Source: Buttiauxella agrestis
Lineage (GTDB): Bacteria; Pseudomonadota; Gammaproteobacteria; Enterobacterales; Enterobacteriaceae
Assembly (NCBI RefSeq): GCF_900446255.1
Contig: NZ_UIGI01000001.1
Span: 3,994,763-4,058,762 of the forward strand
Direction: 5' to 3'
DNA length: 64,000 bases
Shown: in pieces, positions 32,986 to 37,535 of the stretch
How positions within the stretch are numbered: position 1 is the first letter of the stretch
Layout: every line of letters starts with the position of its first letter
The notes under the pieces: generated by a model
The model's database searches: none
Seen by the model: the letters and a program-made list of their open reading frames with translations, nothing else
Told to the model about the DNA's origin: nothing
Program-made: the position numbers and the translations under genes

Positions 32986-33123
32986 TAGGCTAATCATTTA
33001 TTGGTAATACAAATCGAGGGGGCATTCTACTCTCTCGACGCGTTTGGGCAAAACTTTCATAACTTCGAGAGTTTCCCTTAGAATAGCGTGTTGCCACTAT
33101 TTCCACGAATCAGGAGCCGATTC

Positions 33124-34404
33124 ATGAGTAAGTCTGAAAACCTGTACGCTGCCGCCCGCAAAGTCATCCCTGGCGGGGTGAACTCACCGGTTCGTGCCTT
33201 TACCGGAGTCGGCGGTGTACCGCTGTTTATCGAACGCGCTGACGGGGCTTACCTGTTTGATGCTGACGGCAAAGCCTATATCGATTACGTCGGTTCATGG
33301 GGGCCAATGGTTCTGGGTCATAACCATCCGGCTATCCGTAATGCGGTGATTGAAGCGGTAGAACGCGGCCTGAGCTTCGGCGCGCCAACCGAGATGGAAG
33401 TGAAAATGGCGGAACTGGTGACTGAACTGGTTCCAACCATGGATATGGTTCGCATGGTGAACTCCGGTACTGAAGCCACCATGAGCGCGATTCGCCTGGC
33501 TCGCGGTTTCACCGGGCGCGATAAAATCATCAAATTTGAAGGCTGCTACCACGGCCACGCTGACTGCCTGCTGGTAAAAGCGGGTTCTGGTGCACTCACC
33601 CTCGGCCAGCCAAATTCACCGGGCGTTCCAGCTGATTTCGCCAAACACACCCTCACCTGCACCTATAACGATCTCGCCAGCGTGCGTGCAGCATTCGAGC
33701 AGTATCCGCAGGATATCGCCTGTATCATCGTTGAACCGGTCGCGGGCAACATGAACTGCATTCCACCAAACGCCGATTTCCTGCCGGGCTTACGCGCCCT
33801 GTGTGATGAGTTTGGCGCCCTGTTTATCATCGACGAAGTGATGACTGGATTCCGTGTTGCCCTGGCGGGCGCGCAGTCTTACTACGACGTGGAGCCTGAC
33901 TTAACGTGCCTGGGTAAAATCATCGGTGGCGGTATGCCCGTCGGTGCATTCGGTGGCCGCCGTGAAATCATGGACGCTCTGGCACCAACCGGCCCGGTTT
34001 ATCAGGCGGGCACGCTTTCTGGTAATCCAATCGCGATGGCCGCAGGTTACGCGTGCCTGACAGAAGTCTCTCAACCTGGCATTCACCAGACGTTGACTGA
34101 GTTGACTGAAATGCTGGCGCGTGGGCTGTTGAAGGCCGCGAAAGAAGAAAACATTCCTTTGGTCGTCAATAACGTCGGCGGTATGTTCGGCTTGTTCTTC
34201 ACCGATGCTGTGTCTGTGACGAGCTATCAGGATGTGATGGCGTGTGACGTTGAGCGCTTTAAGAAGTTCTTCCATTTGATGCTGGAAGAAGGCGTTTACC
34301 TGGCGCCATCTGCATTTGAAGCAGGCTTCATGTCAGTTGCGCATTCGAAAGAAGATATTCAGAAGACAATTGACGCCGCGCGTCGGGTGTTTGCGAAGCT
34401 GTAA
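33124..34404 (+). CDS. hemL: Glutamate-1-semialdehyde 2,1-aminomutase
   Basis: PLP enzyme that makes 5-aminolevulinate in the C5 haem pathway. From the ATG at 33124 it has 426 residues, as in E. coli. Family motifs: [12 protein letters not shown] near the start, [27 protein letters not shown], and the PLP-binding lysine in [17 protein letters not shown] near residue 265. It is the last conserved gene before the accessory islet; the region beyond its stop holds a palindrome that may terminate it. Confidence 0.98.
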
Positions 34405-34422
34405 CGCTGAGCAAAATAGATC

Positions 34423-34446
34423 CGTAGGGCGAGCAATCGCCCTACG
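34423..34446. repeat. Perfect inverted repeat at the hemL side of the islet
   Basis: CGTAGGGCGA-GCAA-TCGCCCTACG is a perfect 10-base stem with a GNRA tetraloop, 18 bases after the hemL stop and 34 bases before the end of the convergent 609-residue gene. There is no T-run. It resembles short REP-like palindromes of enterobacteria and could stop or protect transcripts from both sides. Confidence 0.7.
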
Positions 34447-34480
34447 AAAGTGGTTAGCCCGTTGTTTCAATACTGCAATA

Positions 34481-36310
34481 TCAGAACCCCGTTACCATAA
34501 ACTCACCAAATTCTTCCTTGAGTTTTGCCGATTGACTGACTGAAGGTTTACCTCCCCCCGCCAGCGCTGAAAAGTGCGTCCTGACCTCTTTGAGTAAAGG
34601 CAATCGATCTGCATCTTCTGTCTCCTTCAACCCGATAATTTGTGCCAGACGCATAGAGTTTAGCAGCGTGCTATTCAGTTCTTTCACATGACTAAAAGTC
34701 CGCGGCATACCTTGCTGTAACATAACCTGAATACTGCCGTTCGCTTCTTTCTCGGTCGCATCAAGCGCCTGGAACACGAGCTTCAAATATTTACGAGTGG
34801 CTTTCAATAATGGGCTTCGATTCATAACCTGCTCAACTTGCTCAATATTTCTGAAGTTGATGGCCGTGTTATTGCTGAACAACAACTCATAAGCTTGCTG
34901 TACATAGCTGTTTGGATCGCTGATTGCGGTAATGAATTCATTCATGGTGCACGGTGCTTCATGCGTTTTAGGCCGATTGGCAACAAAGCGCTGAAGCGAA
35001 TCAGAAAGTTGCTCGGTTGCAAGTGTACGCACTACAAAAGATTTGATAACGTTATCTTCAGAAATCACATCGGCATTCTTCTCTTGCTCGTTGTGACCTT
35101 CAATTGGCAAGACCAGCAAGCGTGAACCACATCCTGCCTGCTTCCGTAAATAGGCAAATTCGCCAATAGTCCCCGCCCCAGAAGTAGTAATACCATCAGC
35201 ATCAGCAATATAAGCCAGATGCATGGCATTAAAATCACCCGCAGCCCCCGGCCCACAAAATAAGAACAGTATTCGCTGGAAAACGGGATCATTAGCACGC
35301 ATTCGCTCATTAACACAGCGTGCTATTATATTTGTTTTCTTATGTGCATAAACATAAACAATATTTTGGGCATCACCGCCGCGCTGTACTAAAGAACCCG
35401 CCATCACGCCTGAAAAGGGACGATTAACATTAGTTAATTTTTCTTTAATTTGTTCTTTAGAAAGTGAATGTGACAATAATAAATCGGCAACTTTTACCCT
35501 GGCAATATATTTCGGGGTTCCACTGAAGATACCAAGGCGTTCAGTAACATTACTAATACTTACCAGGGTATTACGTCCACCTAAATCAATATGCGAAATT
35601 ATCTCTCCGTATCCCCCTAATACTTTTGATAACAAAGCATATTTCGGCAGTAAATTGAGTTGGCTATCATTAAGATTAAGTAAAATTGCATGGTTTTGTT
35701 GATCCAGACATCGTTTCCCGGGGACTCCCGCAGACTGGGCCGCTTTCTGCAAATAGGGATCCATATCCGTCAGTACATAGCAACGTTCTGCCATAATTTC
35801 ACGCCCAAAATTAGCCGTCATGCTATTCATCAGATTCTTGGCTGAAATGATGGGTAATTCATTACAATCTTTATGCGTTTGGAACAAAGTACATTGCGAA
35901 AGCTCTGTGATTATTTTCTGACTATCATTCTGTCTGGCGGATTTTGACGTGACACTGCGCAAAGGAAAACGCGCGATATGCTGGAGAATGCTGGCATCAT
36001 CCGACCCCCCCGTATCCTTATTCAGATATCCATAGATAGATTTATCTGACTCAGCTATCAAGACATTAATTTGGCGATTGACAAGTGTCTTTGCAAGATT
36101 TACGACCAAAGGGGATCGCGGCGTGCCTTCCCACGGACAGGGGACATGAAACATAACGATGCTATCTTCAGGAATAGATTTTTTCTCCAGCGCCATCGAA
36201 ATAATATTGAGTAAACGTGCAGTATGCCCGCCCCCTGTTGGAGAATAGCTAACAACAATTAATTTAGCGGAAGGATTTCTTATAAACTTCCTTACAGTTT
36301 CACTAATCAT
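34481..36310 (-). CDS. Uncharacterised protein with glycosyltransferase-B-like motifs
   Basis: A 609-residue protein that I do not recognise as a named family. Near the N-terminus KLIVVSYSPTGGGHTARLL (residues 16-34) resembles the Gly-rich-His loop of MurG and diacylglycerol glycosyltransferases (TGGGH at 25-29). In the middle DGITTSGAGTIGE (372-384) and EGHNEQEKNA (404-413) resemble the donor-sugar site of the GT-B fold. A helical C-terminal region of about 190 residues is extra. There is no signal peptide or membrane segment, so it is likely cytoplasmic or exported by another route. The ATG is preceded by AAGGGG. Base composition is visibly richer in A and T than in hemL or fhuB, suggesting transfer. 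Function is unknown; glycosyltransferase is an inference from motifs. Confidence 0.75.
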   Translation of the reverse strand: MISETVRKFIRNPSAKLIVVSYSPTGGGHTARLLNIISMALEKKSIPEDSIVMFHVPCPWEGTPRSPLVVNLAKTLVNRQINVLIAESDKSIYGYLNKDTGGSDDASILQHIARFPLRSVTSKSARQNDSQKIITELSQCTLFQTHKDCNELPIISAKNLMNSMTANFGREIMAERCYVLTDMDPYLQKAAQSAGVPGKRCLDQQNHAILLNLNDSQLNLLPKYALLSKVLGGYGEIISHIDLGGRNTLVSISNVTERLGIFSGTPKYIARVKVADLLLSHSLSKEQIKEKLTNVNRPFSGVMAGSLVQRGGDAQNIVYVYAHKKTNIIARCVNERMRANDPVFQRILFLFCGPGAAGDFNAMHLAYIADADGITTSGAGTIGEFAYLRKQAGCGSRLLVLPIEGHNEQEKNADVISEDNVIKSFVVRTLATEQLSDSLQRFVANRPKTHEAPCTMNEFITAISDPNSYVQQAYELLFSNNTAINFRNIEQVEQVMNRSPLLKATRKYLKLVFQALDATEKEANGSIQVMLQQGMPRTFSHVKELNSTLLNSMRLAQIIGLKETEDADRLPLLKEVRTHFSALAGGGKPSVSQSAKLKEEFGEFMVTGF

Positions 36311-36570
36311 GAATCCCCTTACAACATATTATTTAATATAAACACCACCCAATATCATTGGTGAAAATGATATACTCAACTTAATTCATTGATAGAATAT
36401 ATTTAACTTCACGGTCTATTCCAGGTGGCTGTAACGCCTATATGTTAGCTACAAATGCTAAAGAGTAGTGATGTCAGTCTCATTTCTGGTAATGATATTT
36501 TGCAACTAAAATAAACTCTTCATTATATGAATCTGTCGCATCAAAACTCACTTTTTGGAAGGAAGTTAAA
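36311..36570. promoter_or_regulatory. AT-rich divergent promoter region of the islet, with palindrome
   Basis: This 260-base region lies between the two divergently transcribed islet genes and must hold both promoters. It is very AT-rich. A perfect inverted repeat, ATATCATT and AATGATAT separated by six bases (36352-36373), lies about 42 bases before the ATG of the 609-residue gene and looks like an operator half-site pair. I cannot assign -35 boxes with confidence. No regulator gene is adjacent. Confidence 0.5.
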
Positions 36571-37497
36571 ATGTATAAAAGATATCTGGATTGTAATGCC
36601 TCAGACTTAATGGATCTTTCCCGCGCCGATTTGCTCTTTTCTCTCAGAGCCTGCGAAGGCCGTATTCTGGTGAGTGAAACTATTGTCACCGTCACACCAT
36701 TACTCACCTCGGTCACTAATGCTGAACTGGCTGCCAGCCAGGGCGCAGATCTTTTACTGCTCAACCTGTTTGATGTTGAAAATCCCAAAATTGCAGGAAT
36801 GCCTGCCGATATACCACCCGAGGATGTCATCCGCAAATTACAGCATCTAACCGGTCGTGTTATTGGCGTTAATCTGGAAGCAGTCGATAAGAGCTTTTGC
36901 GCTAAACACGAAGAACTTTGGAAGATGCGTCAGGGGCGATTTGCTACCGCGGCTAATGCACGCCGACTCCATGAAATGGGCGTCGGGTTTATTGTACTGA
37001 CAGGAAACCCAGGCAACGGCATCAGCAATGAAGCGATCGCTGAAAGTTTGCAGGAAATACGTGCTGAATTAGGTGAAAAGATGGTGCTGATCGCAGGAAA
37101 AATGCACTCTGCGGGGATCTTACCGTCTGGCTCGCAAAAACTGATAACACCGGATGATGTAGAAACATTCATCCGAAAAGGTGCCGATATCATTTTGTTA
37201 CCCGCCCCCGGAACAGTGCCAGGGATAACGCTCGAGTATGCGCAAACGCTGATCGATCTGGCACATCAAATGGGCGCGATGACCATGACCGCAATTGGCA
37301 CCTCGCAAGAAGGTGCGGACGCTGAAACCGTACGTCAAATTGCCCTAATGAGCAAAATGGCCGGAACCGACTTACACCACATCGGTGATACCGGCTACAC
37401 CGGGATAGCAATACCCGAAAATATTCGCACTTACAGCATCGCTATCCGTGGTGTTCGCCATACTTACACTCGTATCGCAAGGTCCGTCAATCGCTGA
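36571..37497 (+). CDS. TIM-barrel-like protein, probably DUF7916 family
   Basis: A 308-residue cytoplasmic protein with alternating strands and helices, typical of a TIM barrel: VIGVNLEAV (98-106), FIVLTGNPG (140-148), MVLIAGKMHSAG (171-182), DIILLPAPGTVPG (206-218), MTMTAIGTS (237-245) and LHHIGDTGYTGI (268-279). The segment SVTNAELAASQGADLLLLNL (47-66) is what I associate with the DUF7916 family, often found beside sugar phosphotransferase genes; the activity is unknown. Here there are no such neighbours. The ATG has a strong GGAAGGAAG upstream. Transcribed away from the 609-residue gene and towards fhuB. Family assignment is from memory of the motif, not a search. Confidence 0.75.
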   Translation: MYKRYLDCNASDLMDLSRADLLFSLRACEGRILVSETIVTVTPLLTSVTNAELAASQGADLLLLNLFDVENPKIAGMPADIPPEDVIRKLQHLTGRVIGVNLEAVDKSFCAKHEELWKMRQGRFATAANARRLHEMGVGFIVLTGNPGNGISNEAIAESLQEIRAELGEKMVLIAGKMHSAGILPSGSQKLITPDDVETFIRKGADIILLPAPGTVPGITLEYAQTLIDLAHQMGAMTMTAIGTSQEGADAETVRQIALMSKMAGTDLHHIGDTGYTGIAIPENIRTYSIAIRGVRHTYTRIARSVNR

Positions 37498-37503
37498 TAC
37501 TGA

Positions 37504-37535
37504 CAGAGCCGTTATAGAGCCTATCAACGGCTCTG
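37504..37535. repeat. Perfect inverted repeat at the fhuB side of the islet
   Basis: CAGAGCCGTT (37504-37513) and AACGGCTCTG (37526-37535) form a perfect 10-base stem with a 12-base loop. It lies between the convergent 308-residue gene and fhuB and covers the fhuB stop codon. No clear T-run on either side. Confidence 0.7.

What the first reader, a model, noticed from the sequence alone, without database searches (positions are those of the whole stretch)
34481..36310. Unrecognised 609-residue protein with GT-B-like donor and acceptor motifs
The gene sits between two conserved genes (hemL and fhuB) that are adjacent in E. coli. It has TGGGH at residues 25-29, SGAGTIGE at 377-384 and GHNEQEKNA at 405-413, a pattern reminiscent of MurG or MGDG-synthase-type glycosyltransferases, plus about 190 extra C-terminal residues. 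It has no signal peptide and no pathway neighbours. It could be a stand-alone cytoplasmic glycosyltransferase or a secreted effector. The motifs are seen; the function is inference.
Basis: partly seen in the sequence, partly recalled or inferred. Interest (0 to 1): 0.75.

Follow-up and report, generated by a model that had tools for sequence, protein, structure and literature searches.

The report
Rare island-borne GT28-like glycosyltransferase candidate
A foreign-looking two-gene insert in a Buttiauxella genome carries a rare, conserved protein that is probably a distant kind of sugar-transferring enzyme, and some of its relatives in other bacteria sit beside surface-pilus genes.

Summary
The ORF is real (34481-36310, minus strand, 609 aa) and the quoted motifs are exact. 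It is not alone between hemL and fhuB: with a divergent DUF7916 gene (36571-37497 +) it forms a 3.1-kb low-GC insert that 11 of 12 held Buttiauxella genomes lack and B. agrestis has at the same site. Relatives are rare: B. agrestis (88%), two Rahnella (70-71%) and three motif-bearing copies in the Janthinobacterium family (35-37%). Six compared sequences keep YSPTGGGHT, LTDMD, DQQNH, YVYAH, FCG, GAGTxGE, GHxEQ..NA and a C-terminal TGF; selection is purifying. The isolated C-domain of the window and B. agrestis passes Pfam's GT28_C cut-off and the family's C-domain beats all shuffles against MurG, but not against MGDG-type proteins; the N-domain matches no GT family, and no structure could be predicted. 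Best reading: a cytoplasmic GT28-like NDP-sugar glycosyltransferase, fold inferred, acceptor unknown. In three Janthinobacterium-family genomes a relative without these motifs directly follows a type IVb-pilus operon, with the motif-bearing copy beside it in two; between two of them it is 49.5% identical while T2SSF is 97%.

The parts
34481..36310 (-). GT28-like protein gene, 609 aa
   Evidence: dN/dS 0.16 vs B. agrestis; homologs
34889..35383 (-). C-terminal GT28_C-like domain as tested (residues 310-474) with YVYAH, FCG, GAGTIGE, GHNEQEKNA
   Evidence: PF04101 23.2 bits, E=8.1e-5, cut-off 22; hhalign of the family C-domain vs MurG, 0 of 100 shuffles reach the score
35594..36289 (-). N-terminal domain as tested (residues 8-239) with YSPTGGGHT at 22-30 and LTDMD at 180-184
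   Evidence: motifs invariant in six sequences; no GT family among Pfam matches up to E=10 (HMMER filters drop most matches above 0.1)
34484..34519 (-). last 12 codons, tail KEEFGEFMVTGF; TGF at the very C-terminus in the motif-bearing sequences
   Evidence: alignments A3, A4, A5
36571..37497 (+). divergent DUF7916 gene, 308 aa, co-inserted
   Evidence: PF25509 419.7 bits; present with the GT gene in B. agrestis and Rahnella G464
34405..37523 (.). insert between hemL and fhuB, 44% GC vs 51% for the window
   Evidence: absent in 11 of 12 held Buttiauxella genomes, where the two stop codons lie 35-210 bp apart; GC
34421..34448 (-). palindrome after the GT stop codon, terminator-like
   Evidence: 1 terminator-like site found in the region, 3.4 expected in shuffles, so weak

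Best explanation
The gene encodes a soluble cytoplasmic enzyme whose C-terminal domain is a divergent GT28-type donor-nucleotide-binding domain and whose N-terminal domain carries a GGGH glycine loop; together they probably make a GT-B glycosyltransferase. An NDP-sugar would bind the C-domain loops (GAGTxGE, GHxEQ..NA) and the N-domain GGGH loop would lie on the acceptor side (inferred). About 150 further C-terminal residues end in an invariant TGF tail, perhaps a docking or closing element (inferred). The acceptor is unknown. In enterobacteria the gene is a horizontally acquired accessory gene kept near DUF7916, a family that elsewhere lies beside GntR and PTS sugar-uptake genes. Shown: ORF, motifs, C-domain similarity to GT28_C, insertion, linkage, purifying selection. 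Inferred: fold, chemistry, donor, acceptor, role of DUF7916.
For: PF04101 match in 4 of 6 scanned members (best E=7.2e-5); above the curated cut-off for the isolated C-domain of window (23.2) and B. agrestis (25.4), just below for Rahnella G464 (21.8). hhalign of the C-domain (7 sequences) vs 20 MurG, and vs the same 20 plus 3 MGDG-type proteins, aligns GAGT.GE with GALTVSE and EQ..NA with HQ..NA, P=0.0026 and 0.001; 0 of 100 column shuffles reach the score in each comparison, and 0 of 60 in a repeat of the second. The 20 MurG are those of 30 fetched proteins that were under 460 aa (25) and held a GG[TS]GGH motif (20). The N-domain's best hhalign to MGDG-type proteins sets GGGH on GAGH, though 4 of 60 shuffles score as high. 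Motif columns are invariant in six sequences. dN/dS 0.16 and no strongly hydrophobic segment.
Against: The whole-protein Pfam score lies below the cut-off (21.3 vs 22). None of three Burkholderiales motif-bearing C-domains matches PF04101. hhalign with the whole-protein alignment gave P=0.006-0.012 and probability 4-6% against MurG sets, and P=0.37 against MGDG-type proteins; reversed-target controls gave P 0.07-0.42. Even the isolated C-domain reaches only probability 12-22%, and against MGDG-type proteins alone 4 of 60 shuffles score as high. N-domain tests were null: no GT match in Pfam; 29 of 100 shuffles reach its MurG score. A four-motif collinear test was not convincing: 6 of 400 shuffles for P0001, 7 of 400 for P0002, 70 of 400 for L046, 187 of 400 for L045, 236 of 400 for motif-less P0003, and P0001's first block did not sit on GGGH. 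The Janthinobacterium N-domain weakly resembles ABC_sub_bind (E=4.2e-4, below cut-off). No solved-structure sequence matches convincingly (best E 0.43). No structure model was obtained.
Confidence: 0.57

Rival explanations
1. A GT-B-fold enzyme that is not a transferase: a nucleotide-sugar hydrolase or epimerase (PseG-like or UDP-GlcNAc 2-epimerase-like), acting with DUF7916 in sugar metabolism.
For: The same C-domain similarity; the DUF7916 neighbour, whose family lies beside GntR and, in some records, PTS genes and, on an Enterococcus plasmid, beside annotated glycoside hydrolases and a hyaluronate lyase. That PseG shares the MurG fold is recalled.
Against: No Pfam or NCBIfam match to such families; the nearest profile is GT28_C; the Janthinobacterium genome has no DUF7916 match.
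Confidence: 0.15
2. Not GT-B: another Rossmann-like alpha/beta protein in which a glycine-rich segment resembles GT28_C by convergence.
For: N-domain without GT match; weak ABC_sub_bind match for the Janthinobacterium N-domain; Burkholderiales members do not match GT28_C; hhalign probabilities low; no gain over shuffles against MGDG-type proteins.
Against: C-domain match above cut-off in two sequences and above all MurG shuffles, aligned at the GT28 motif positions.
Confidence: 0.18
3. A pilus-linked family: in Burkholderiales a motif-less paralog, with or without the motif-bearing copy, modifies or is exported by a type IVb pilus; the enterobacterial gene is a relocated offshoot.
For: In three of four loci of the Janthinobacterium family (L004/L015, L045, L047) the motif-less paralog directly follows T2SSF, pilin, two Shufflon_N pilins and an SLT transglycosylase (some genes equated by blastp only). 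Between L045 and L047 it is 49.5% identical, against 97% for T2SSF and the 543-aa ORF before it, 90% SLT, 83% pilin, 75 and 64% Shufflon_N.
Against: The fourth locus (L046) sits by GH114 and GGDEF genes instead; the immediate neighbours scanned in the window and in Rahnella are not pilus genes; no export signal seen.
Confidence: 0.1

Closest known systems
GT28 C-terminal domain, PF04101 (MurG type)
   Same: The AD.IT..GAGT.GE and P..GH.EQ..NA segments align with MurG's in order, with the stretch after them
   Different: Only residues 361-451 match; N-domain unmatched; about 150 extra C-terminal residues; whole protein not above cut-off; PF04101 is found in 59 of 60 sampled genomes, this gene in very few
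MGDG synthase/UgtP-type GT28 (PF06925)
   Same: By eye GAGH vs GGGH, VTDFD vs LTDMD, PIPGQE..NAD vs PIEGHNEQEKNAD in the same order (sequences; hhalign places two of these correctly)
   Different: No PF06925 match reported up to E=10; not above shuffles for either domain (4 of 60 each)
EarP (EF-P arginine rhamnosyltransferase)
   Same: Working analogy only: a bacterial glycosyltransferase that modifies a protein (EF-P modification from the abstract start of PMC5615199, seen in the listing; GT-B fold and cytosolic location recalled)
   Different: No sequence match seen (Pfam; PDB chains)

Membership tests
GT28_C (PF04101) | Score over the curated cut-off | tested here: inconclusive
   Whole protein 21.3 vs 22; isolated domain 23.2 window, 25.4 B. 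agrestis, 21.8 Rahnella G464; no match in three Burkholderiales members
GT28 as a full enzyme | GT28-type N-terminal domain (PF03033 or PF06925) | tested here: not met
   Neither is listed for 4 N-domains up to E=10; HMMER filters drop most weak matches
GT28 as a full enzyme | GT-B fold, two facing Rossmann domains | not testable with these tools
   Structure job failed
GT28 as a full enzyme | NDP-sugar-dependent transferase activity | not testable with these tools
   needs the bench
MurG | NCBIfam family model match | tested here: not met
   Only a chance-level YidC match, E=0.083
Anti-phage defence protein | PADLOC model match | tested here: not met
   None for the window protein; 1 of 6 members matches one model at E=0.099
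DUF7916 (for 36571-37497) | Score over the curated cut-off | tested here: met
   419.7 vs 27 bits

The most novel reading that the evidence does not exclude
A previously undescribed glycosyltransferase family with two branches: a motif-bearing enzyme (window, Rahnella, some Burkholderiales) and a motif-less, fast-diverging partner at the end of type IVb pilus operons. In Burkholderiales the two may work as an enzyme/pseudo-enzyme pair that decorates pilins or pilus adhesins; in enterobacteria the enzyme branch was captured alone and sits with DUF7916.
Probability: 0.14. Interest if true: 0.68.

Novelty: new variant of a known kind. Interest (0 to 1): 0.42.

Why it matters
If it is a glycosyltransferase, it is a distant branch near GT28 that Pfam only just detects, with an added C-terminal region, a strictly kept C-terminal TGF and a degenerate paralog at pilus operons. 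That gives testable hypotheses about glycosylation away from the usual surface-polysaccharide clusters, and a recurring neighbour for DUF7916, a family for which the paper library held no paper under that name.

Tried and rejected
Whole-protein PDB sequence searches found only weak matches to coiled-coil-type chains (best E 0.43). PADLOC and PHROGs gave nothing convincing. Plasmid, phage and viral-contig searches for the GT protein were empty (the Janthinobacterium protein was not searched in phages), so a phage or plasmid vehicle is not shown. A home-made four-block motif test built on three MGDG-type sequences failed to discriminate: the eight MurG proteins printed scored 11-27 against 200-223 for the three source sequences, P0001 scored 14.0 with the first block misplaced, and unrelated window ORFs scored as high (18.8); I give it no weight. 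N-domain profile comparison was null. The idea that the insert is simply the Rahnella GT-GntR-PTS-DUF7916 cluster moved over is weakened: Rahnella DUF7916 is 80-83% identical to DUF7916 copies in L043, L048 and L049 (no GT found on those records) but only 61% to the window's. Promoter, terminator and repeat scans showed nothing beyond chance. Paper searches (listings only, no paper opened) showed no paper on this family; absence in print is claimed only for those searches.

Limits of the counts: the genome-contig scan finds close relatives only and did not return four genomes found later (that collection is not the same), so rarity counts are lower bounds. The order search (0 of 394) held no known positive and shows little. 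The 'type IVb' label rests on Pfam names (PilS, Bundlin, Shufflon_N) and general knowledge.

Full report
OBSERVATION. The gene is at 34481-36310 on the minus strand, 609 aa. hemL (33088-34404) is confirmed by NCBIfam. The sequence between this gene and fhuB is not empty: it holds 36571-37497 (+), DUF7916 by Pfam (419.7 bits).

THE INSERT. The window's own assembly is not held; relatives point to Buttiauxella (nearest genome G001; its genus holds G009, the genome of L002, whose record is titled Buttiauxella agrestis with an 'unverified' tag). In 11 of 12 held Buttiauxella genomes the hemL and fhuB stop codons are 35-210 bp apart, with neither insert gene between them (in G001 hemL is split over two contigs but its 3' end adjoins fhuB). 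The E. coli genome viewed has 34 bp. In the window the distance is 3119 bp, and B. agrestis (G009/L002) has both genes at the same site. The insert has 44% GC and the GT gene's third positions 40%, against 60% for hemL and 67% for fhuB. dS between window and B. agrestis is 0.39 (GT) and 0.37 (DUF7916), against 0.73 (hemL) and 0.57 (clcA-like), so the insert may have moved more recently than its flanks diverged; this is a weak inference. dN/dS is 0.16 and 0.055, so both proteins look maintained.

DISTRIBUTION. The GT gene was found in 1 of 12 held Buttiauxella, 2 of 14 genomes of the genus of Rahnella perminowiae, 0 of 394 of the order (no positive in the sample), 1 of 40 of the genus of Janthinobacterium violaceinigrum, 1 of 398 of the phylum, being the query's own genome, and, with the profile, 4 of 392 of the Janthinobacterium family including the query genome; one of those four holds only the motif-less branch. 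No match in the plasmid, phage or viral-contig collections as searched. A genome-contig scan gave three loci.

THE DUF7916 LINK. Of 26 Buttiauxella and Rahnella genomes, GT is in 3 (G009, G422, G464) and DUF7916 in 4 (those plus G006). If unrelated, 3 of 3 falling among 4 of 26 has probability 4/2600, worked by hand and ignoring ancestry. In Rahnella G464 the order is GT(-), GntR/UTRA(-), a shortened PTS gene of 159 aa (+), DUF7916(+). In G422 the PTS frame is 467 aa and the GT lies at another contig's end, cut there. DUF7916 also occurs where no GT was found: next to GntR in Buttiauxella G006 and in a Photobacterium, and next to GntR with PTS-like matches on an E. coli plasmid. The Janthinobacterium genome has no DUF7916 match. 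So the link is seen in two genera but is not obligatory, and DUF7916 is most simply a sugar-metabolism protein (inference).

PROTEIN FAMILY. Six motif-bearing sequences (window, B. agrestis, Rahnella G464, Janthinobacterium P0002, L045, L046) keep Y22-T30, S103-D105, LTDMD, DQQNH, YVYAH, FxFCG, GAGTxGE, PIxGHxEQxxNA and a final TGF. A seventh, Rahnella L003 (P0004), is cut by its contig end. A second branch (P0003, first copy in L045, L047) is 23-25% identical to the window protein and lacks GGGH, GAGTxGE and GHxEQ, yet is clearly homologous (hhalign probability 100). PF04101 matches 4 of 6 members scanned, and the isolated C-domain exceeds the cut-off in two of the six scanned. The C-domain against MurG scores above 100 of 100 shuffles, but against MGDG-type proteins alone 4 of 60 shuffles reach it. 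The N-domain tests failed, and three Burkholderiales C-domains do not match PF04101.

PILUS LINKAGE. In Janthinobacterium (L004/L015), L045 and L047 the motif-less copy directly follows T2SSF, a pilin ORF (PilS in L047), two Shufflon_N pilins and an SLT transglycosylase. The motif-bearing copy follows in the first two, before a sugar ABC-transporter operon. Pfam was run on some of these genes in each locus; the rest are equated by blastp. Between L045 and L047 the 543-aa ORF and T2SSF are 97% identical, SLT 90, pilin 83, Shufflon_N 75 and 64, the motif-less copy 49.5. This gradient is unexplained: pilin-matched modification or an arms race would both give it. L046 has a motif-bearing copy beside GH114 and GGDEF genes.

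VERDICT. A likely distant GT28-like glycosyltransferase in a two-gene horizontally acquired insert. The C-domain similarity is supported; N-domain, fold, donor and acceptor are inferred. The secreted-effector reading has no positive evidence here. Novelty: new variant of a known kind.

Noticed in passing
L045 7419-9404, L047 8318-10315, L004 5622-7574: A motif-less GT-like paralog closes type IVb pilus operons and is far more divergent than the pilus genes (49.5% vs 97% for T2SSF between L045 and L047).
   Followed up: partly
L014 12590-13069: The PTS gene beside DUF7916 in Rahnella G464 is 159 aa and lacks most of EIIC, against 467 aa in Rahnella G422 (L044 999-2402).
   Followed up: partly
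window 36571-37497: 25 plasmid records show 80-90% identity to DUF7916; the five such rows displayed match only its last 63 residues, so they look like remnants of a DUF7916 gene (one region viewed). Described only.
   Followed up: partly
window 34405-37523: dS between window and B. agrestis is lower in the insert genes (0.37-0.39) than in hemL (0.73) and the clcA-like gene (0.57).
   Followed up: no
hemL-fhuB gap in L018-L029: In the empty sites the short gap varies between species and in several holds palindromic, repeat-like CCCTCTCCC or GTAGGGTGGAT sequence; the window has a palindrome at 34421-34448.
   Followed up: no
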